Source: Achromobacter pulmonis (GTDB lineage Bacteria > Pseudomonadota > Gammaproteobacteria > Burkholderiales > Burkholderiaceae_B). From it: 64,000 nucleotides of DNA. Under the pieces are notes generated by a model that made no database searches, had not been told where the DNA came from, and saw nothing but the letters and a program-made list of their open reading frames with translations. A program made the position numbers and the translations under genes. The DNA is taken from positions 40,105-104,104 of the forward strand of contig NZ_CADIJV010000019.1 in NCBI RefSeq assembly GCF_902859765.1, read 5' to 3'. Positions 31,640 to 49,423 of the stretch are shown piece after piece (positions within the stretch are counted from its first letter, which is position 1; the number at the start of each line of letters is the position of its first letter).

Positions 31640-32979
31640 AACGGCACATTGCCGGGCCATTGCGGCGTACCGGCCAGCACGGCCAGGTGCTGGTGCCGGG
31701 GCTGCTGTTGCTGGGAGGGCTGGCCGCCGTGCTGGTCATGCAGTACGGCGTGGGGCGCACGGTCGAGTCGCGCACGCGCCTGATCCACGCGACGGATGCG
31801 GCGGCTTTCAGCGGCGCGCTGGAACAGGCCCGCCAGCTCAATTTCCTGGCCTACGCCAACCGCGCGCAGGTAGCCCATCAGATCGCAATGGCGCATCTGG
31901 TGACGTTGGGCGCATCCATGGCGTTTGCCGATACGTTGGCCGGCCAGCATCGGCGCAACAATCCACCTGAACACCTGCTTGCCGCGCTTTTCGGCCGAGA
32001 GGTGGCACAGGCCTATCGCGCGGCGCGCAACGATCCGCAAGCGCAGGCCGGTTTGGCGCGGGCTTATGCCGAACACGATCGCGTCGTGCACGAAGTGTTG
32101 GCGGCAGGATCGGCCGCCGCCGTGGCTGGGTTACCCGCGGCGCGCGCGCGCCGGGTGCGGGAGGTGCTGCGAGACAATCTCGGGGCCGGCGATTCCCCGG
32201 TATTCCACCTGTCGCAAGATGACTGGCCGGGATATGTACGGCGGCGTGCCGCGACACCCGGTCGCGGCCTGTGGTCGGCGGTCGAGCAGGCGGCGGGCCG
32301 CTACGATTTCCTCGGCCGGCGCGACGCAACACGGAGCAAGGCCCTGCCAAACGGCACGCGGTGCCCGCAAGCGCCTCATGCCTTGCGGTGGCGTGGCTCG
32401 ACCTGGCTGGGCGCGGACGGACGTTGGGGCGCGCTGGACACGCAGTCGTTCCATTCCTCGCGCCAGAATCGCTGGGCGGGTTGCTATTACCGCGAATACA
32501 GCATGGCTTGGGGCGCCGTGCTCGGGCCCAATGCCGAGGCGCCATCCGAAGTGGAATATACGGCGGCCCCTCCCGCCGACTTCACCGAGTTGGACTTCTG
32601 GCGCTGGGTACGGCAGTCGACCACATGGGACTTGCGCGCCGGCACAGGTACCCCGCTGGCCAATTCCTATGCCATGGCTGGGGCCCGGCGTTGGCCCGGC
32701 CGGGGCTTGCCGGACGACTACGAGGTGGCGAAGGACGCCGCGCCGCTGCGCTTCACGCTGGCGGTGCGCCTGGAGCGGCAGGTCACGATGCAAGCGCGGG
32801 GCACGGATGAGCGCGTCGTGCCGGGCTCCCGCCTGGACGAGCACCCGGCGATCGTGGCCAGCAGCACCGCCGAGACCTACTTTTCGCGGCCCTCGGCGCA
32901 TCCCGATGGCGCCGTTGAACTGGCGACCCTGTTCCGGCCATATTGGCAGGCGCGGCTGTCGGCCGAGGGGGCGCGATGA
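31636..32979 (+). CDS. TadG-like pilus assembly protein
   Basis: 447 aa. A basic N-terminus and one hydrophobic segment (about 20-42, VLVPGLLLLGGLAAVLVMQYGVG) are followed by a large periplasmic part. Directly after the segment is an Ala-rich helix (THATDAAAFSGALEQARQLN-like). This fits the putative Flp pilus-assembly TadE/G family. The large domain has no motif I recognise. It overlaps both neighbours by 4 nt. Confidence 0.68.
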   Translation: MKRHIAGPLRRTGQHGQVLVPGLLLLGGLAAVLVMQYGVGRTVESRTRLIHATDAAAFSGALEQARQLNFLAYANRAQVAHQIAMAHLVTLGASMAFADTLAGQHRRNNPPEHLLAALFGREVAQAYRAARNDPQAQAGLARAYAEHDRVVHEVLAAGSAAAVAGLPAARARRVREVLRDNLGAGDSPVFHLSQDDWPGYVRRRAATPGRGLWSAVEQAAGRYDFLGRRDATRSKALPNGTRCPQAPHALRWRGSTWLGADGRWGALDTQSFHSSRQNRWAGCYYREYSMAWGAVLGPNAEAPSEVEYTAAPPADFTELDFWRWVRQSTTWDLRAGTGTPLANSYAMAGARRWPGRGLPDDYEVAKDAAPLRFTLAVRLERQVTMQARGTDERVVPGSRLDEHPAIVASSTAETYFSRPSAHPDGAVELATLFRPYWQARLSAEGAR

Positions 32980-33563
32980 GGCGTCACGCCTACGGGCAAC
33001 GCGGACAGGCCATGGTCGAGGCGTTGCTCATGTTGCCGGTGCTGGTCCTGGTCTTCCTGGGAGTCGCCTGGATGGGCAAGGCCCAGTACACCGCACTCGC
33101 GCTGATGCAGGCCAGCCGCCAGACCGCGATGTCGGTCGCCTTGGGACTCCCTGTGGCGCCGGCGGAAGGCATCCGCATCCAGCAGGCCGCCGACATTGGC
33201 GACGACGGGTGGCGGGCCGGATGGTGGGGCGGGGATGCACGCAGGGTTTGGGCCACATCCCAAGCGCGGGTGGGCGGGACGGCCGTCTGGGGCGGCTTCC
33301 AACTTGCGCGTCGTGTCGGCGTCGCCGCCGGCGCGGGCAATGCCCGCGACGATGAGGATGCGCAACGCCGTATCGGCCTGTCCACAACGGGTTGGGGGCG
33401 GGTGGCGGCGGGCTCGGCGTCTCTGGCGCAGATGCTTGCGCCAGTGGTCGAGGCCGTGGATAGGCCCTGGCGCCGGCCTTCGCCGTCCTGGGACTGGTTG
33501 TCGGCCTGGGGGGATGTGCTGCCTGCCGACAACCGCGTGAACGACAGGAGGACATCCCCATGA
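32976..33563 (+). CDS. TadE-like minor pseudopilin
   Basis: 195 aa. The N-terminus RGQAMVEALLMLPVLVLVFLG is a TadE/F-type signal with Glu after the cleavage region and one hydrophobic helix. The remainder is Trp/Gly-rich and predicted periplasmic. TadE and TadF are processed like pilins and are needed for Flp pilus assembly. The ATG at 32976 overlaps the previous stop (ATGA). Confidence 0.75.
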   Translation: MRRHAYGQRGQAMVEALLMLPVLVLVFLGVAWMGKAQYTALALMQASRQTAMSVALGLPVAPAEGIRIQQAADIGDDGWRAGWWGGDARRVWATSQARVGGTAVWGGFQLARRVGVAAGAGNARDDEDAQRRIGLSTTGWGRVAAGSASLAQMLAPVVEAVDRPWRRPSPSWDWLSAWGDVLPADNRVNDRRTSP

Positions 33564-34318
33564 AGGCGCTGTCAGGCGGGCGGCTCGGTCGCGCACGTCA
33601 TGCCGGACCCGGCGGACGTGCGGGTGCGTGGGGCGTCATCGTTGGATTGATTGTAGTGGTTTGCATGGCGCCGAATGCGACGGGCATGGCGGCAGGGGGG
33701 GCGCCGATGGCATTCGTGTCCCCGCAGGAGACGACTCCGGCGGCGTTGCGGTTCCCGACGGGTTCGCGGGTCGAGCCTCTGGCCGATCGGCTTTGGTTGC
33801 ACGGGCTGCCGTTGCAGGCCGTGGTGTTCGATGCGCCAGTCGATGTGCCGGCATTGATCCGGACCCTGTCGCGCCAGCAGCCCGCATTCCGCGATCTCCT
33901 GATCCTGCCTGGGTTGGCGATCCTGTCCGGCCGTGCCGGCGACGCGATCTGGGTGGCGTTGCTGGCCAGCCCTTCGGCCGGTCGCAGTGTGGGCAGCGTG
34001 TCGTCGCTGCGGGCGTGGGCGCAGTCGCCGGATGCGCCCACGCCGTCCTGGCTGCCGCCCGCCGCGCGCCTGAAGCTGGATGTCGGCGTGCTGGATGGCG
34101 GCACCACGGTTCGCGAGAGCGTCTGGCAACATCCGATGGCCCCGGCGCGGTTGGAGGCGATCTTGCGCCAGCGTTTGCTGCGCCAGGGGTGGCGCTTCGA
34201 TGAGGATGGGGGCGCCGGCGCCTGGCAGTCGTGGCGACGCCGGGGCGAGCGCTTGCAGTGGATGATGATGCCGCTGGATGCCGGCAGCGGCCTCTGGGTC
34301 CGGTGGTGGAAACCATGA
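33560..34318 (+). CDS. Uncharacterised exported protein of the tad operon
   Basis: 252 aa that I do not recognise. One hydrophobic segment (about 23-43) probably acts as a signal or anchor after a basic N-terminus; the rest would be periplasmic. No cysteine or catalytic signature is visible. A G7 tract at 33695-33701 (in frame) codes for Gly-Gly right after the signal region. It overlaps both neighbours by 4 nt, so it is very probably made with the pilus machinery. An outer-membrane or secretin-accessory role, as for RcpB or TadD, is a guess. Confidence 0.7.
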   Translation: MKALSGGRLGRARHAGPGGRAGAWGVIVGLIVVVCMAPNATGMAAGGAPMAFVSPQETTPAALRFPTGSRVEPLADRLWLHGLPLQAVVFDAPVDVPALIRTLSRQQPAFRDLLILPGLAILSGRAGDAIWVALLASPSAGRSVGSVSSLRAWAQSPDAPTPSWLPPAARLKLDVGVLDGGTTVRESVWQHPMAPARLEAILRQRLLRQGWRFDEDGGAGAWQSWRRRGERLQWMMMPLDAGSGLWVRWWKP

Positions 34319-35142
34319 TGCGCGTCGTCTTGCTGGGTTTGCGCAAACTTGCCGTCCCGCTGCTGGCACTGGCCGCCGGCCTCGTCGCGGCCTGGGCGGT
34401 TCGGGAGCATGTGCGGCAGCGGGTCGAGCACCTGGAAGCCGCGGCGCGTACACCGCAGGTCAGTCGCCTGGTGGCGGCGCGGGATCTGCCGGCTGGGACG
34501 GTGCTGGAGGCATCGCAATTGGCGGTACGCGAGGTACCGGCGGCTTGGGCACCCGCAGCCAGTCTCGATCCGCGGGCGATCGATAGTGTCCTGGGTACCC
34601 GACTGGGCGCCGATCTGGCAAGTGGCGAGTTGCTGCTCAGGGCCTGCCTGGGTGCGGCCGATCGCGCGTCGTCACCGTCGCTGGCCGCGCGGATCAAGCC
34701 GGGACAGCGCGCTTTCGTAGTGGAGGCGGCCGATCTCGGCGGCCTGGCAGGCATGCTGCGGGAGGGTGATGCCATTGATGTCTACGTGTCGCTGCCGGCC
34801 CGGGGGCGCGAGGGCACCTTCCCCGTGCTGCAAGGCGTGCGTGTCCTGGCCGCTGGCGAGGGCCCGACGGGTTCCGCCCAGGTCACGCTGGCGGCAGGCC
34901 CGGACGACGCCCTGCGCTACCTTTCGGCCCGCCAGGCAGGAACCCTGACGGCTTTGCTGCGCAACCGCGACGATTCCTCGACGATCAGCGCGGCGCCCGA
35001 CGCCGGTCTCTTGGCGCGCGCCAGACCGGCGCAGGCACCCCCGCGCGGCGCGGGCGTGGAGATCCTCTACGGCGATCGACCTGGCGAACCTGCTGACATC
35101 TACGCCACCCCCTCGGTGGTACCTGAACCGGAGTATCCATGA
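34315..35142 (+). CDS. cpaB: Flp pilus assembly protein CpaB (RcpC)
   Basis: 275 aa with an N-terminal membrane helix (about 10-28) and an SAF/beta-clip domain (SRLVAARDLPAGTVLEASQL). An RcpC domain follows (IKPGQRAFVVEA, LREGDAIDVYVSL). CpaB is a periplasmic component next to the secretin in Tad systems. The start codon ATG at 34315 overlaps the previous stop; an ATG one codon later is equally possible. Confidence 0.88.
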   Translation: MMRVVLLGLRKLAVPLLALAAGLVAAWAVREHVRQRVEHLEAAARTPQVSRLVAARDLPAGTVLEASQLAVREVPAAWAPAASLDPRAIDSVLGTRLGADLASGELLLRACLGAADRASSPSLAARIKPGQRAFVVEAADLGGLAGMLREGDAIDVYVSLPARGREGTFPVLQGVRVLAAGEGPTGSAQVTLAAGPDDALRYLSARQAGTLTALLRNRDDSSTISAAPDAGLLARARPAQAPPRGAGVEILYGDRPGEPADIYATPSVVPEPEYP

Positions 35143-36501
35143 ACATCGGATTCGGCGCGGTGATTTCCGCGATTTGCCTGGGCCTGACAACTTTCCCGGC
35201 GTGGCCGGCAGCCGAGGCTCTCGATATGCAGGTCGGCGAGAGCCGTGTGCTCACGCAGCCGGGTGTCACGCGCGTGGCCATCGGCAACAGCCAGGTGTTG
35301 AGTGCGATGGCCACCGATGACCATGACGTGGTGGTCTCCGCGCTGGCCGAGGGGCAGTCCTCGATGCATGTGTGGGCAGATTCCGGCGTCATGCACTACG
35401 ACGTCAGGGTGGTGGCGGCGGGCGCGCCGCGCCTGCGCGCCGAGGTCGAGTCCTTGCTGACGCGTATCCCCGGCGCGCGTAGCGCCATGGTCGGAGGGCG
35501 CATCGTCATCGAGGGCGACGACCTCTCCGACGATGACCGGGCCCGCGTGGCGGCACTGGCGCAGCGCTATCCCGAGGTTGTGGATTTCACTGGGCAGGTG
35601 GGTTGGGACAACATGGTCTTGCTGGACGTGCAGGTGGTGGAGATTCCCAGCTCGCGCCTGCGCGAATTCGGAGTGCGCTGGGATGGCGTGACACAAGGCG
35701 GGCTGAACGCCGCGCTGGCGTGGGATGCCGGGGCGCGGGGCAGGATGGCGCGGCCCGGCGATCAGGTGGTCGAGACAGCCGCGCCGGTGTCGTCGGCAGC
35801 GGGCTATTTTGGGGTGAATGCCCTCTTGTCCGCCCGCATTGCCGCGCTGGCACAGCGCGGCGAGGCCGTCATGCTGGCCCAACCGCAGTTGCTGGCGCGC
35901 AGCGGTGCCAGCGCGACTTTCCTGGCGGGGGGGCGAGGTGCCGTATGTCTCGACCGATTCGCGCGGCAACCCAACGACCTTGTTCAAGCCTTATGGGGTG
36001 TCGTTGCGGATCACGCCGCGCATAGACCGCAACGGCGTCATCCGCTCGCTGATCGAAGTGGAGGCCAGTTCCGTCGACATGGCCTTGACGGCTGCCGGCG
36101 GTCCGGCCCTGCGCACACGCCGCGCATCGACGGAGTTCAATGTGCGCTCCGGCGATACGCTGGTCATTGGCGGCTTTCTGTCGCGGGAACGCTCCGATGA
36201 CATCAGCGGCCTGCCCGGGCTGAAGGACATTCCGATTCTTGGGGCGTTGTTTTCGTCGCATCGCTATCAGTTGCGTGAAACCGAATTGGCGATCTTCGTC
36301 ACGCCCCGGATCGTGTCGCGCAACGAACCGGCCATGGCAGATCAGGTGCGTCGGGGGCGCGCCCTGGTCGATGCCGCGTTTTCACATCCGTCACGGCTGG
36401 CAACGGCTCCCGTCGCGACGGCGGGCTGGAGCGTCCGTGGCGGGGAAGGGTCGCAGTGGTCGCACGCTGTCCAGGATTCCTCTTCCACCAACCAGGAGTA
36501 A
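35139..36501 (+). pseudogene. cpaC: Tad secretin CpaC (RcpA), frameshifted at a G7 tract
   Basis: Outer-membrane secretin of the Flp pilus. The first frame (from 35139) gives a signal peptide, the pilus-formation N-domain (MQVGESRVLTQPGVTRVAIG), a BON-like segment and the start of the secretin core (LLARSGASATFLAGG). At 35927-35933 there are seven G; with six, the frame would continue as GGEVPYVSTDSRGNPTTLF. The rest of the secretin domain (VRSGDTLVIGGFLSRE, GLKDIPILGALF, LAIFVTPRIV) is intact in the shifted frame to 36501. As written, the product runs into an unrelated tail that stops at 36200. It is phase-OFF, a pseudogene or a sequencing error. Confidence 0.9.
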
Positions 36502-36505
36502 TACC

Positions 36506-38152
36506 ATGCTGGAAATCGAAATGACCTTCGAGGATCGCGCGCGGCGCAAGGTCAGCGTGGCGGCGCCGGTGCTGATCGGCCGCGGCACGCATTGCGACCT
36601 GCGCATCGCCAATTGGCGGGTAGGCCGCCAGCATGCGCGGTTGCTGCGCGAGGCGGCCGCCATCGTGCTCGAGGACCTGGGCGCCCTGGGGGGCACGTTC
36701 GTCAACGGCCTGCGCGTGACGCGCCATGCACCGGTGCAGCCCGGAGACGAGATCCTCATTGGTCCGTGCCGCCTGCGCGTGCGTGCGATGCATCCGGACG
36801 CGCCTGGCAGCGCCGCCGCCGGCCAGGCCATGCCCGGGGCTCCCGAGTCCCAGGCGGACGCGCCAGCGTCGCCGTTGCCCAGCCTGGACCTGCGCCGTCG
36901 CCTGCATGCCGCGTTGCTGGCGGCGCTCGATCTGCGCCGCCGCGATGTGGCCGGCATGAGCGACGCCGCCTTGCGCGCGGAAGCCGATCGCCTGCTGACG
37001 CGGATACTGGCCGACGACGTGGGGCTGCCGGCGGGCACGGACCATGCGTCGTTATGCCGCGAAGTCCTGGATGAAGCCGTGGGGCTGGGGCCGCTGGAGC
37101 CATTGCTGGCGGCGCCCGATGTTACCGAGGTCATGGTCAACCGGCACGACGAGATCTACGTCGAGCGTCATGGGCGTCTCTGGCGCCATGCCGCCGCGTT
37201 CACCAGCGAGCAATCCGTGCGCCGCGTCATCGAGCGCATCGTGACCCCGCTGGGGCGCCGCATCGATGAGAGTTCGCCGATGGTGGATGCGCGGTTACCG
37301 GACGGGTCGCGCGTGCACGCCGTCATTCCTCCTGTTGCGCTCAGGGGCGCGAGCCTGACGATCCGCAGGTTTCCCGCGCGCCGTCCCGCCATGGCCGATC
37401 TGGTGGCGGCGGGCACGCTCAGCGCGCCGATGGCGCAGTTTCTGGCGTGCTGCGTTCGGCAGCGCAAGAACGTGGTGGTTTCAGGAGGGACCGGAGCGGG
37501 CAAGACCACGCTGTTGAATGTGCTGTCCCAGGAGATCCCCGAGGGCGAGCGTGTGGTGACGGTCGAGGATGCGGCGGAGCTGCGGCTCGACCACGCACAC
37601 CTGGTGGCCCTGGAAGCGCGCCCTCCCAACCAGGAAGGTCGCGGCCGCATCGATATCCGCGAGCTGGTGCGCAATGCCTTGCGCATGCGGCCGGACCGGA
37701 TCGTGGTCGGTGAATGCCGTGGGGCGGAAGCTTTTGACATGCTGACCGCCATGAATACCGGTCATGAAGGCTCGCTGACCACGCTTCACGCCAATTCCCC
37801 GCGCGATGCCCTGGCGCGGCTGGAGTCGATGGTGCTGATGGCGGGGCTCGACCTGCCGCTGGCCGCCGTGCGCGAGCACATCGCGGCCAGCGTCGACATC
37901 GTCGTGCAGCAGGCGCGGTTGTCCGACGGGCGGCGAGTAGTGGCATCGGTGGCCGAAGTCACCGGCGTGGAGAGCGGCCGTATCCAGATGCAGGAACTGT
38001 TCCGGTACGAACGCGCGGGTGGTTTTTCGGCTTGCGGCATCTTGCCCTCCTTTGCGCAGGCATGGCAGGAAGCCGAGGTGGACCTGGACGTGGCCTGGTT
38101 CGGCACGGACCGGGCTGCGTCCGGCGCGGCCTACCGGGCAACGCTGCCATGA
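36506..38152 (+). CDS. cpaF: Tad pilus ATPase CpaF (TadA) with an N-terminal FHA domain
   Basis: 548 aa. Residues about 1-95 form a forkhead-associated domain (LIGRGTHCDLRIANWRVGRQHARL, then LGGTFVNGLRV), which binds phosphothreonine. A low-complexity linker follows, then a CpaF-type secretion ATPase with Walker A GGTGAGKTT, the Asp/His boxes and RNALRMRPDRIVVGECRG. It powers pilus extrusion in the cytoplasm. An AGGAG site lies ahead of the ATG at 36506, so it does not depend on coupling to the broken cpaC. FHA fused to CpaF is unusual next to the stand-alone CpaE/TadZ plus CpaF arrangement. Confidence 0.92.
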   Translation: MLEIEMTFEDRARRKVSVAAPVLIGRGTHCDLRIANWRVGRQHARLLREAAAIVLEDLGALGGTFVNGLRVTRHAPVQPGDEILIGPCRLRVRAMHPDAPGSAAAGQAMPGAPESQADAPASPLPSLDLRRRLHAALLAALDLRRRDVAGMSDAALRAEADRLLTRILADDVGLPAGTDHASLCREVLDEAVGLGPLEPLLAAPDVTEVMVNRHDEIYVERHGRLWRHAAAFTSEQSVRRVIERIVTPLGRRIDESSPMVDARLPDGSRVHAVIPPVALRGASLTIRRFPARRPAMADLVAAGTLSAPMAQFLACCVRQRKNVVVSGGTGAGKTTLLNVLSQEIPEGERVVTVEDAAELRLDHAHLVALEARPPNQEGRGRIDIRELVRNALRMRPDRIVVGECRGAEAFDMLTAMNTGHEGSLTTLHANSPRDALARLESMVLMAGLDLPLAAVREHIAASVDIVVQQARLSDGRRVVASVAEVTGVESGRIQMQELFRYERAGGFSACGILPSFAQAWQEAEVDLDVAWFGTDRAASGAAYRATLP

Positions 38153-38994
38153 CCTGGCTGGCTGCAGCGGGGGCGATGGTGTGCGTCATGCTTCTGGCGT
38201 GGTGGTCGCAGCGCTGGTTGAGGCCAGGGCTGCGACGCTACCGTGAACGCTACACCCAGGAGGTGCGCGGCCGGCTTGACGAGCTGTTCCTGTTTGTCGA
38301 CCCGACTCGGCTGTGGGTGGGGGCGGTGGCTCTGGCGAGTCTGGCGGCGGCCACGGCCTTCATGCTCACCTCCAGCGGCGCCGGCGCCTTGCTGGCGGGC
38401 GCGGCGGCGTGGCGTGCGCCGCGTCTGCTGGCGGCGGCGCTATGGCGCCGCCGCGTGCGGCGCTTCGAGCAGCAACTGCCCATGGCGTTGCTGATGCTGG
38501 CCTCGGCGCTGCGCGCCGGCGTTGCCTTGATGCCCGCCCTGCGCCGGGTCGTGGACCAGGGCGGAGGACCCTTGGCGCAGGAATTCGGCCTGATGCTGCG
38601 CGAGCAAAGGCTGGGCGTGCCTTGGGACGAGGCATTGGAACATCTGAACATGCGCATGCCGGCGGAATCGACCCTCCTGGTTGTGGCGGCCATGCGTATC
38701 GCGGCGCGTACCGGCGGCAATCTGGCCGAAGCGCTCGACAGCATTGCCCACACCCTGCAGGCCCGGCTGCGCCTGCAGGGCCGGGTACGGGCGTTGACCT
38801 CGCAGGGGCGCCTGCAGGCATGGATCATGGGGGCTCTGCCGCTGTTATTGCTGGCGGTGCTGGACTGGCTCGAACCTGACGCCATGGCACCCCTGTGGCA
38901 TACGCCGCAAGGGTGGGCGGTGCTGGCGTTGGTGGCCACGCTGGAAGTCCTGGGGCTCTGGCTGATCCGGCGCATCGTCCAGGTCGATGTCTGA
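38149..38994 (+). CDS. tadB: Tad inner-membrane platform protein TadB
   Basis: 281 aa with hydrophobic segments near the N-terminus, at about 60-85 and at the C-terminus. The type II secretion F (GspF-like) domain is recognisable in FEQQLPMALLMLASALRAG and VAAMRIAARTGGNLAEALDSI. With TadC it forms the platform that CpaF acts on. It overlaps cpaF by 4 nt and tadC by 1 nt. Confidence 0.9.
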   Translation: MTWLAAAGAMVCVMLLAWWSQRWLRPGLRRYRERYTQEVRGRLDELFLFVDPTRLWVGAVALASLAAATAFMLTSSGAGALLAGAAAWRAPRLLAAALWRRRVRRFEQQLPMALLMLASALRAGVALMPALRRVVDQGGGPLAQEFGLMLREQRLGVPWDEALEHLNMRMPAESTLLVVAAMRIAARTGGNLAEALDSIAHTLQARLRLQGRVRALTSQGRLQAWIMGALPLLLLAVLDWLEPDAMAPLWHTPQGWAVLALVATLEVLGLWLIRRIVQVDV

Positions 38995-39914
38995 TGCGTG
39001 GAGCGGAAGGTATGTGGCTGTATCTGGCGATGATGGGCGCAGCCTGGGGCGCGGGCGGGATGGTGTGGCGGCTGTTGCGTATCCCGCTGCGCGCGGCGAG
39101 CAACCCGGACGGCACGCCAGGGTGGTGGCGGATCGTCATGGCTGGGTGCCTGCCTCTGTTGCGCTGGGGTGCTCCGCTTTGGCGTTACCTGGGCCAGGCG
39201 CGCCTGGCCGGCCTGATCGCCCAGGCCGGCTTGCCGACGGCGGTTCGTGCCGAACATGTCCTGGCCTTGGGCCTGCTGGCCGGATTGGCCGGAGCGGGGT
39301 TGGCGGGCGTGGGGATGCTGGCGGGCGAGGCCTGGAACGGTGCCCACGAGGGCCCATTCGGAGCCGTCGATTCCTCGCGCTGGCTACCATGGGCCATGGC
39401 GGGCGGGGCGCTGGCCAGCGTGCTGCCGGTACTGTGGTTGCGGGCGCGCGGGGCTGCGCGCCGCCGCCGGATCGAGCGCGGCCTGCCCTTTGTGCTGGAC
39501 ATGATGATCCTGTGCGTCGAGGCCGGGCTCAGCGTACCGGCGGCTCTGTTGGTGGCGGCCTCGAACGGTCCGGACGGGCCGCTGCGCGAGAGCCTGGCAG
39601 TCGCGCTGGCGCAGATGCGGGCGGGCGTGAGCAGGGCCGTGGCCCTGCGTGCCATGGCCGAGCGTTGCGGTAGCGCGCTGGTAGGCGATTGGGTCGCCGC
39701 CCTGGCTCAGGCGGACGCCCTGGGTATCAGCCTGGCGCCGGTATTGCGGGCGCAGGCGGTGCAGTGCCGCCGCGACCGCCAGCAGCGGGCCGAGCAATTG
39801 GCGCTGCAGGCGCCGGTCAAGCTGCTGCTGCCCCTGGTGGGCTGCATCTTTCCCTGCACCTTCATCGTGCTGGCGTTTCCCATCGCCATCCAGTTGCTGC
39901 GAGGTTCGGTGTGA
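38994..39914 (+). CDS. tadC: Tad inner-membrane platform protein TadC
   Basis: 306 aa. It has the same GspF-like fold as TadB (IERGLPFVLDMMILCVEAGL, then VALRAMAERCGSALVGDWV) and several membrane segments, the last near the C-terminus (LLLPLVGCIFPCTFIVLAFP). The start ATG (38994) shares its A with the tadB stop codon. The GTG of the DUF192 gene overlaps its stop. Confidence 0.9.
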   Translation: MRGAEGMWLYLAMMGAAWGAGGMVWRLLRIPLRAASNPDGTPGWWRIVMAGCLPLLRWGAPLWRYLGQARLAGLIAQAGLPTAVRAEHVLALGLLAGLAGAGLAGVGMLAGEAWNGAHEGPFGAVDSSRWLPWAMAGGALASVLPVLWLRARGAARRRRIERGLPFVLDMMILCVEAGLSVPAALLVAASNGPDGPLRESLAVALAQMRAGVSRAVALRAMAERCGSALVGDWVAALAQADALGISLAPVLRAQAVQCRRDRQQRAEQLALQAPVKLLLPLVGCIFPCTFIVLAFPIAIQLLRGSV

Positions 39915-48015: not shown

Positions 48016-49423
48016 TCAGGCCCGGGTGGCGTCCGCCGTCGGGCTCGGCGGCGCCGGCTCGGGCGGCCGGGTCGGCAGGGTGATGACGAAACGCGTGCCC
48101 ACGCCCACCTCGCTTTGCATGGTCAGCGAGCCGCCCTGGCTCTGGCAGATGCGTCGCGCCAGGTACAGTCCGATGCCCATGCCTTGCGTTTCGCGATGCG
48201 CCGCGCGCCGGAAGCGCGGTTCGAAGATGCGGGCCTGTTCTTCCTGGCCGATGCCGGGGCCGCGGTCCGTGACCGCCACCCACGCCATCGGCACGCCGTT
48301 CCCGTCGGCCAGGCCGGTTTCGATCCGGATGGGTTCGCTGGCCGGGGAATACTTGACCGCGTTGTGGATCAGGTTGCGCAGCACCACGCTGGTCAGGGCG
48401 CGGTCACAATAGACCGGCAGCCGCTCGCTGCCCTTCTGCAGGCGCAAGGCGTGCGCAGTGTCGGGTTGCATGGCGGCTACCACCTCGCTGGCCAGTTCGG
48501 CCATGTCGGTCTGCTCGCTGCGCGGCGTCCAGGCCTGGTCTCCCAGGCGGTCCTGGTTCAGCAACTGCTCCATCAATTCGGTCATCCGGCTGACCGAGCG
48601 GTGGATGCGCGCCAGGCGGCTGTCGATGGTTTCGCCGCTGCCCGACAGAATCATGTCGAGCGACTGGGCCGCCGCGCTGATCGTGGCCAGCGGCGCGCGC
48701 AGCTCATGCGAGATCAACGCGTTCATCTGGCGTTGAGTATCGAGCGCGCCCGCCATTTCCACCAGCCGCAATTCGCCCTCGACCCGTTGGTCGGCGTCGG
48801 CCGAGTCCGGGCGCTTGGGGGGGCTCCAGTCCCGTCAGGAGCAGGGCGGCCTGCACCAGCAGCAGCCGCGCCAATGGCGCCGCCAGCGTGCCCGTGTCGG
48901 GCATTGCCCAGGCGTCATGGCCCAGGATCCAGGCCGATGCCAGGTAGGCCCCGCCCAGCGCCAGGACGGCGCCGCGCCGCGGCATGGGCCGGGCCCCGGC
49001 AGTCAGGAACCACGCCGCCAGGATCACGCTGGCGGTCGCGGCGGCGCCGGCGACGAGGGTAGGCAGCAAGCCGCCGTCGCCGTCATAGACGAAGATCAGC
49101 GCCAACGCCGCCACGCCAGTGAGCGCGATGCAGGCCCAGCGGCATGCCACGGCCAGGCGCGCGGCGGCGCGCTGGCCGGCGATCAGCGGAATGGACAAGG
49201 CCAGCAGGGCGGCAAAGGAGCCGGCCTGCAGTGCGCCGGCGGGAAACAGCGCCGGCTGGGTGCGCAGCACGCCTTCCACCAGGGCGAAGGCCAGGCCGGC
49301 GCCATAAATCATGGCGCGGGTGCGAATCCAGGCGACGGCGCAGGCCACCGCGCAAGCCAGCGCGATGCCGGCGATCAGGCCGATCTGCAGATCGGAGAGG
49401 TGAGGAAACAATCCTTCCGTCAA
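48016..49423 (-). pseudogene. Membrane sensor histidine kinase, frameshifted at a C7 tract
   Basis: The N-terminal frame (from 49423) encodes about 190 residues with some seven hydrophobic segments, a membrane sensor of the 7TM type. At 48817-48823 (seven G on the plus strand, C7 in the coding strand) the frame is lost; with six C it would go on as EPPKRPDSADADQRVEGELR into the kinase core. That core is intact: H-box ISHELRAPL, N-box NLIHNAVKYSP, G1 DRGPGIG and G2 MGIGLYLARR. As written, the first frame stops at 48704, just short of the H-box. It is presumed partner of the adjacent response regulator. Confidence 0.9.

What the first reader, a model, noticed from the sequence alone, without database searches (positions are those of the whole stretch)
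35920..35940. Tad secretin gene cpaC is out of frame by one G in a G7 tract
With six G the secretin would read straight through (FLAGG then EVPYVSTDS). With the seven present it fails inside the secretin core. Every other tad gene in the operon is open and shows no decay. A one-base change in a homopolymer inside an otherwise intact operon points to phase variation, a recent pseudogene or an assembly error. Bordetella is known to switch bvgS by C6/C7 slippage, which makes a reversible OFF state credible.
Basis: partly seen in the sequence, partly recalled or inferred. Interest (0 to 1): 0.75.

Follow-up and report, generated by a model that had tools for sequence, protein, structure and literature searches.

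The report
Broken pilus secretin gene in Achromobacter
In one Achromobacter genome a pilus-pore gene goes out of frame at a run of seven G; this looks like a recent loss by a common kind of copying slip, or a sequencing error, rather than an evolved on/off switch.

Summary
A G7 run at 35927-35933 lies in a Tad-pilus secretin gene (cpaC/rcpA type, 35139-36501). The frame changes there, so the Secretin domain is left in another frame and translation ends at 36200. The organism is Achromobacter, not Bordetella. The gene is in one open frame in 40 of 40 other genus genomes that hold the orthologue. The site has 2-6 G in those 40, never 7: ordinary codon choice, not a kept slippage tract. Both halves still show purifying selection and no further damage, so the break is recent or not real. 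Under a strict filter, in 660 kb of comparable coding sequence this genome changes frame at 4 of 15 G/C7 runs, 0 of 67 G/C6 and 0 of 192 A/T runs; a looser filter flags a few of the latter too. One of the four is a sensor kinase about 12 kb away, intact in 42 of 42 other genus genomes. MutS and MutL are full-length. A second Tad locus has an unbroken secretin. Best reading: isolate-specific slipped-strand inactivation, possibly revertible, about 50%; read-level error about 27%; evolved phase switch about 14%. Raw reads or sister isolates would decide.

The parts
35139..35926 (+). cpaC upstream piece, N-domain and first part of the core
   Evidence: PF13629 E 1.4e-12; matches G012 homologue residues 1-265 at 81%
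35927..35933 (+). G7 run where the reading frame changes
35934..36200 (+). out-of-frame tail of 88 residues and TGA stop
35935..36501 (+). cpaC downstream piece with the Secretin domain, in another frame, no further damage
   Evidence: PF00263 E 7.8e-34; matches G012 residues 264-453 at 86%
32943..33563 (+). TadE-like gene (start codon uncertain)
   Evidence: PF07811 E 3.2e-07
33560..34318 (+). unassigned operon gene; holds another G7 (33695-33701) and stays open
   Evidence: G012 homologue at 56% spans the run
34231..35142 (+). cpaB/rcpC
   Evidence: PF16976, PF08666
36506..38152 (+). FHA-cpaF/tadA ATPase gene, 4 bases after the cpaC stop
   Evidence: PF00498, PF00437
38158..38994 (+). tadB-type membrane platform gene
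   Evidence: PF00482
39012..39914 (+). tadC-type membrane platform gene
   Evidence: PF00482
48055..49423 (-). sensor histidine kinase gene, also out of frame at a seven-base run (48817-48823); not part of the operon, bears on the cause

Best explanation
A recent, isolate-specific inactivation of the secretin of one of two Tad pilus loci in an Achromobacter strain, by slipped-strand replication at a G run that arose by chance from glycine codons. Shown: the frame changes at the run; the two halves lie in different frames; both halves are otherwise undamaged; relatives have intact copies. Inferred: translation from the cpaC start gives the N-domain plus a foreign tail without the barrel-forming domain, so this Tad pilus cannot cross the outer membrane; the 305 untranslated bases before cpaF may also lower expression of downstream genes. 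A run of this kind can slip back at low frequency, so the state may be revertible, but nothing shows that it was selected as a switch.
For: Orthologue in one open frame of 456 aa or more in 40 of 40 other genus genomes that have it. Purifying selection in both pieces: dN/dS of this genome against seven relatives 0.116-0.198 upstream and 0.057-0.126 downstream, within or near the range among relatives. Under the strict filter frame changes occur at G/C7 (4 of 15) and not at G/C6 (0 of 67) or A/T runs (0 of 192). In P. aeruginosa repair-deficient lines 96.3% of indels fell in G:C runs, most often of six bases, insertions 3.32 times commoner than deletions (PMC4702332, passages). No stop inside the matched domain in 23 of 23 helicase and GTPase matches of this genome.
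Against: No reads were available, so an error of the record is not excluded. Several genus-wide genes broken only here at seven-base runs is also what length miscounts would give. MutS and MutL are full-length, so no mutator background explains several hits. Only cpaC and the glycosyltransferase look like single-step length changes; the kinase and the unnamed gene do not. The looser survey flagged 6 of 188 A/T, 5 of 422 G/C5 and 2 of 74 G/C6 runs. The contrast with relatives' tad loci at runs of seven or more (4 of 18 against 0 of 15) is not significant (p 0.11).
Confidence: 0.5

Rival explanations
1. A sequencing or assembly error: the run length was miscounted and the gene is intact in the cell.
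For: Three genus-wide genes (cpaC, a sensor kinase, a glycosyltransferase) are out of frame in this record and open in other genus genomes, each at a seven-base G/C run. No other damage in cpaC. The draft has 91 contigs.
Against: Under the strict filter no frame change at 67 G/C6 and 192 A/T runs, one at 408 G/C5. Longer G/C runs (8 or more) are in frame in 3 of 3. No stop inside 23 of 23 helicase and GTPase domain matches, though changes outside the domains would be missed. The sequencing platform is unknown to me.
Confidence: 0.27
2. An evolved phase-variation switch: the run toggles the Tad pilus on and off by slippage, as in bvgS or bifidobacterial pili.
For: A C6/C7 run switches bvgS in B. 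pertussis (PMC1891110, passages); pili are typical targets (PMC9187656, abstract and passages); a sensor kinase and an envelope-type glycosyltransferase are out of frame at similar runs in the same genome.
Against: Run not conserved: 2-6 G in 40 of 40 genus genomes and in 51 scored of 54 further loci. Seven-G runs below the chance number in the window. G/C runs of seven or more in 26 named tad loci in frame in 15 of 15 testable. The run is short.
Confidence: 0.14
3. An older, fixed pseudogene in a shrinking genome.
For: At 5.67 Mb the genome is smaller than 39 of 42 genus relatives; of the three smaller ones two are incomplete. Other conserved genes are out of frame.
Against: No second lesion in cpaC and no rise of dN/dS or of private amino-acid changes (4 and 2; relatives 0-18 and 0-9).
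Confidence: 0.06
4. Recoding: ribosomes or RNA polymerase slip at the run and make some full-length protein.
For: The run is followed in the upstream frame by CGA, a rare arginine codon (10 of 389 arginine codons in nine genes).
Against: Relatives encode the protein in one frame with no run kept; nothing else suggests a signal; no expression data.
Confidence: 0.02

Closest known systems
bvgS C6/C7 phase switch of Bordetella pertussis (PMC1891110, passages seen)
   Same: A six-to-seven base G/C run inside a coding sequence changes the frame and truncates the product.
   Different: There the alleles are known to vary in culture; here only one genome is known, the gene is a pilus secretin, the genus is Achromobacter and the run is not conserved.
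G-tract pilus switch of Bifidobacterium breve (PMC9187656, abstract and passages seen)
   Same: A G run in a pilus operon sets the frame.
   Different: Tracts of 9-12 G, present in several species, length mixtures measured; sortase pili, not Tad.
Indels in G:C runs of repair-deficient Pseudomonas aeruginosa (PMC4702332, passages seen)
   Same: Preference for G:C runs around six bases and for insertions.
   Different: MutS and MutL are full-length here; only two single-step cases.
Tad secretin RcpA/CpaC (PMC10499894, abstract and passages seen)
   Same: N-domain, Secretin domain and operon position.
   Different: The two parts lie in different frames here.

Membership tests
Tad secretin CpaC/RcpA | N-terminal pilus-formation domain and Secretin domain | tested here: met
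   PF13629 on the upstream piece, PF00263 on the downstream piece
Tad secretin CpaC/RcpA | Gene between cpaB and cpaF in a tad operon | tested here: met
Tad secretin CpaC/RcpA | Both domains in one reading frame | tested here: not met
   40 of 40 genus orthologues have one frame
Homopolymer phase-variation locus | Run inside the coding sequence that sets the frame | tested here: met
Homopolymer phase-variation locus | Run longer or more frequent than chance, or kept in relatives | tested here: not met
   7 matches against 18.99 expected; 2-6 G in 40 of 40 genus genomes
Homopolymer phase-variation locus | Alleles of different length in one population, reversible | not testable with these tools
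   no reads and no second genome of the species were at hand
Pseudogene | Relaxed selection or further lesions | tested here: not met
Homopolymer error of the assembly | Frame changes spread over runs of all bases and lengths, housekeeping genes included | tested here: inconclusive
   strict: 4 of 15 G/C7, 0 of 67 G/C6, 1 of 408 G/C5, 0 of 192 A/T; loose: 6 of 188 A/T, 2 of 74 G/C6, 5 of 422 G/C5; 23 of 23 helicase and GTPase domain matches without a stop; reads not available

The most novel reading that the evidence does not exclude
This Achromobacter lineage has an undescribed set of short G/C-run switches (a Tad secretin, a genus-wide sensor kinase and an envelope-type glycosyltransferase) that toggle surface and regulatory genes at seven-base runs, and the record caught three of them OFF at once.
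Probability: 0.1. Interest if true: 0.6.

Novelty: new member of a known kind. Interest (0 to 1): 0.27.

Why it matters
If real, it shows one Tad pilus locus disabled while a second has an unbroken secretin, in an opportunistic genus, and gives a small set of runs to watch in longitudinal isolates. If it is a reading error, it warns that pseudogene calls at G/C7 runs in this draft should not be trusted.

Tried and rejected
Bordetella origin: rejected; the genome groups with Achromobacter.

Mutator strain: MutS and MutL are full-length. Of four MutS motif patterns that I wrote from memory all matched; of seven MutL patterns two matched. I read the other five as too strictly written, since related forms are visible in the printed protein. 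Not supported; other repair genes were not tested.

Excess of G7 runs in this genome: suggested by a first comparison with G012, dropped because 26 named Achromobacter tad loci have 17 G/C runs of seven or more in 315,778 bases, against 28 in 461,106 bases here.

Looser frameshift surveys gave more events: 24 rows including duplicates and 28, against 8 in the strict one. I looked at alignments for 16 of them and one G012 site and at domains of 10 proteins; many looked like over-long ORF starts or gene borders, a judgement and not a count. The strict filter also removed one G7 frame change in G012 (1 of 8 G/C runs of seven or more, 0 of 4), which tells against this genome being unique. Rows on in-frame stops (47 and 42, 25 of each printed) looked dominated by antisense and end effects and were not used. 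One G012 stretch (L169) overlapped another and was left out.

The run-length count used a pattern that needs an in-frame site; 3 of 54 further loci (L093, L101, L107) did not match and are left out; all 40 genus genomes matched. In one search four G6 runs (L035, L036, L044, L047) were scored split by a thin margin and not followed.

The fourth G/C7 case (unnamed gene on contig 23) is unclear: 13 of 43 genus genomes match it, and its open frame here (351 aa) is not short.

Full report
What is there. The window holds a tad (tight adherence, type IVc pilus) operon on the + strand: a TadE-like gene, an unassigned gene at 33560-34318, cpaB 34231-35142, cpaC 35139-36501, an FHA-cpaF ATPase gene 36506-38152, and tadB-type and tadC-type genes at 38158-38994 and 39012-39914. 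In cpaC a run of seven G lies at 35927-35933. Read from the ATG at 35139 the protein is a normal secretin to the run and then continues out of frame to a stop at 36200. The Secretin domain lies in another frame, from just after the run to the stop at 36501. An intact homologue from relative G012 maps on the two frames as residues 1-265 (81% identity) and 264-453 (86%).

Which organism. Genomes of the same genus carry contigs whose lengths equal those of records named Achromobacter dolens LMG 26840, A. insuavis LMG 26845 and A. ruhlandii LMG 1866. The closest named matches of the downstream piece are these three at 85-89% identity; the seven records named Bordetella among the 80 kept have 57-67% (103 matches were found, 80 kept). 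The genome has 5.67 Mb in 91 contigs and is rated 100% complete with 0.1% contamination. The species was not identified; records of this genome or one very near it may be left out of the named collection (note under).

Is the run a kept slippage tract? Of 43 genus genomes searched, this one included, 42 match the downstream piece. Forty others carry the orthologue at 70% identity or more, and all 40 have it in an open frame of 456 aa or more, counted stop to stop. One genome has no match (G027) and one only a distant relative (G033); both are incomplete. At the aligned site these 40 have an unbroken run of 2 G (16 genomes), 3 (8), 4 (10), 5 (3) or 6 (3). Of 54 further loci, from Bordetella and other relatives, 51 could be scored, with 2-6. 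The run is the product of two glycine codons with free third positions. In the window seven-G matches are fewer than expected: 7 against a mean of 18.99 in 100 shuffles. In 26 named Achromobacter tad loci there are 17 G/C runs of seven or more; 15 can be tested and all 15 are in frame. Another G7 in this operon (33695-33701) lies in an open gene. So such runs in tad loci are common and usually harmless, and this one is not a conserved device.

How old is the break? With the two pieces compared apart, dN/dS between this genome and seven relatives is 0.116-0.198 upstream and 0.057-0.126 downstream; the relatives among themselves give 0.034-0.206 and 0.068-0.163. Private amino-acid changes are 4 and 2, against 0-18 and 0-9 in the relatives. 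The downstream piece matches to its end without a further break. The break is recent on the scale of these species, or it is not in the organism at all.

Error or mutation? I compared 1.26 Mb of this genome with 1.34 Mb of G012 at protein level. In 659,818 bases of comparable coding sequence eight frame changes passed the strict filter. Four sit at G/C7 runs: cpaC, a sensor kinase (window 48055-49423), a glycosyltransferase with PMT domains, and an unnamed gene; the last two are on contig 23. By run class: G/C7 4 of 15, G/C of eight or more 0 of 3, G/C6 0 of 67, G/C5 1 of 408, A/T of five or more 0 of 192 (Fisher p 0.0008 for G/C7 against G/C6). The reverse comparison gave three events in 724,626 bases, with 0 of 4 G/C runs of seven or more and 2 of 407 G/C5. 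The looser survey on a smaller set had flagged 5 of 12 G/C7, 2 of 74 G/C6, 5 of 422 G/C5 and 6 of 188 A/T runs here, and 1 of 8 G/C runs of seven or more in G012, so the clean zeros depend on the filter. The difference between this genome and the tad loci of relatives at runs of seven or more (4 of 18 against 0 of 15) is not significant (p 0.11).

The other broken genes. The kinase is open over 480 aa or more in 42 of 42 other genus genomes and over 272 here. The glycosyltransferase (best NCBIfam match 202 bits, far below the cut-off of 567 for the lipid A aminoarabinose transferase model) has an open frame of 251 aa here. Of 41 other genomes that match, 34 do so at 64% identity or more, and 33 of these have an open frame of 527 aa or more without a stop; the other lies near a contig edge. 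The remaining seven match at 50-52% only, probably a paralogue, three of them with a stop. The unnamed gene is unclear: 13 of 43 genomes match, and its frame here is not short. Alignments suggest that only cpaC and the glycosyltransferase are single-step length changes; the kinase and the unnamed gene differ otherwise.

Weighing. Several genus-wide genes broken only here, each at seven G or C, is what a length miscount would look like. But a platform with homopolymer errors should also fail at runs of six and at A/T runs, where the strict survey saw none. In this genome 23 of 23 helicase-domain and GTPase-domain matches have no stop inside the matched domain; frame changes outside the domains would be missed, and two helicase frames are shorter than the G012 frames that I took for their partners (468 against 540, 505 against 724; not followed). 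In mutation-accumulation lines of P. aeruginosa, also GC-rich, repair-deficient cells made 96.3% of their indels in G:C runs, most often of six bases, with insertions 3.32 times commoner than deletions (PMC4702332, passages); a real slip would look the same. MutS and MutL are full-length, so there is no sign of a mutator now. A clinical A. xylosoxidans mutator with a mutS deletion has been described (PMC7168687, passages). I weigh recent slippage above error without being able to exclude either.

How it most likely works. Inferred from the family: translation yields the N-domain and the first part of the core, then 88 foreign residues; the Secretin domain and the C-terminus are absent. In the P. 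[quoted passage not shown] Without the channel this Tad pilus should not reach the surface. The early stop leaves 305 bases untranslated before the cpaF start, which lies 4 bases after the end of the downstream frame, so reduced downstream expression by polarity is plausible (inference). The genome has a second tad locus on contig 7 with TadE-like, CpaB, secretin, T2SSE and T2SSF genes, and that secretin has both domains in one frame, so the cell need not lack Tad pili altogether.

Comparison with known switches. B. pertussis bvgS switches at C6/C7 (PMC1891110, passages), and B. breve pili depend on G tracts of 9-12 whose lengths vary (PMC9187656, abstract and passages). The present case shares the way the frame changes but fails the tests of a kept or over-frequent tract; mixed alleles could not be tested. 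In the held library I searched Achromobacter with 'tad pilus' or 'frameshift' (15 of 105 listed), Flp pili with phase variation, homopolymer and secretin (20 of 32 listed), Achromobacter with 'phase variation' (15 of 31 listed), cpaC with frameshift and Flp (2 of 2 listed), and Achromobacter with Tad terms (12 of 112 listed). The listed titles and abstract starts show no such switch in a Tad secretin; unlisted papers were not seen.

Verdict.

Noticed in passing
window 48055-49423: A sensor histidine kinase gene conserved in 42 of 42 other genus genomes is also out of frame, at a seven-base G/C run in its linker.
   Followed up: partly
L163 13421-13427 (contig 23): A glycosyltransferase gene with PMT domains is out of frame at a G7 run; 33 of 34 closer homologues in the genus are open.
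   Followed up: partly
L156 116-8766 (contig 7): A second tad locus with TadE-like, CpaB, secretin, T2SSE and T2SSF genes.
   Followed up: partly
window 36506-38152: The CpaF/TadA ATPase of this operon carries an N-terminal FHA domain.
   Followed up: no
window 64000: Seven-G runs are clearly fewer in the window than in dinucleotide shuffles, 7 against 18.99.
   Followed up: no
L035 10917, L036 11085, L044 11080, L047 11124: G6 runs at a similar place downstream of the tad operon in four Achromobacter species were scored as frame changes against some homologues by a thin margin.
   Followed up: no
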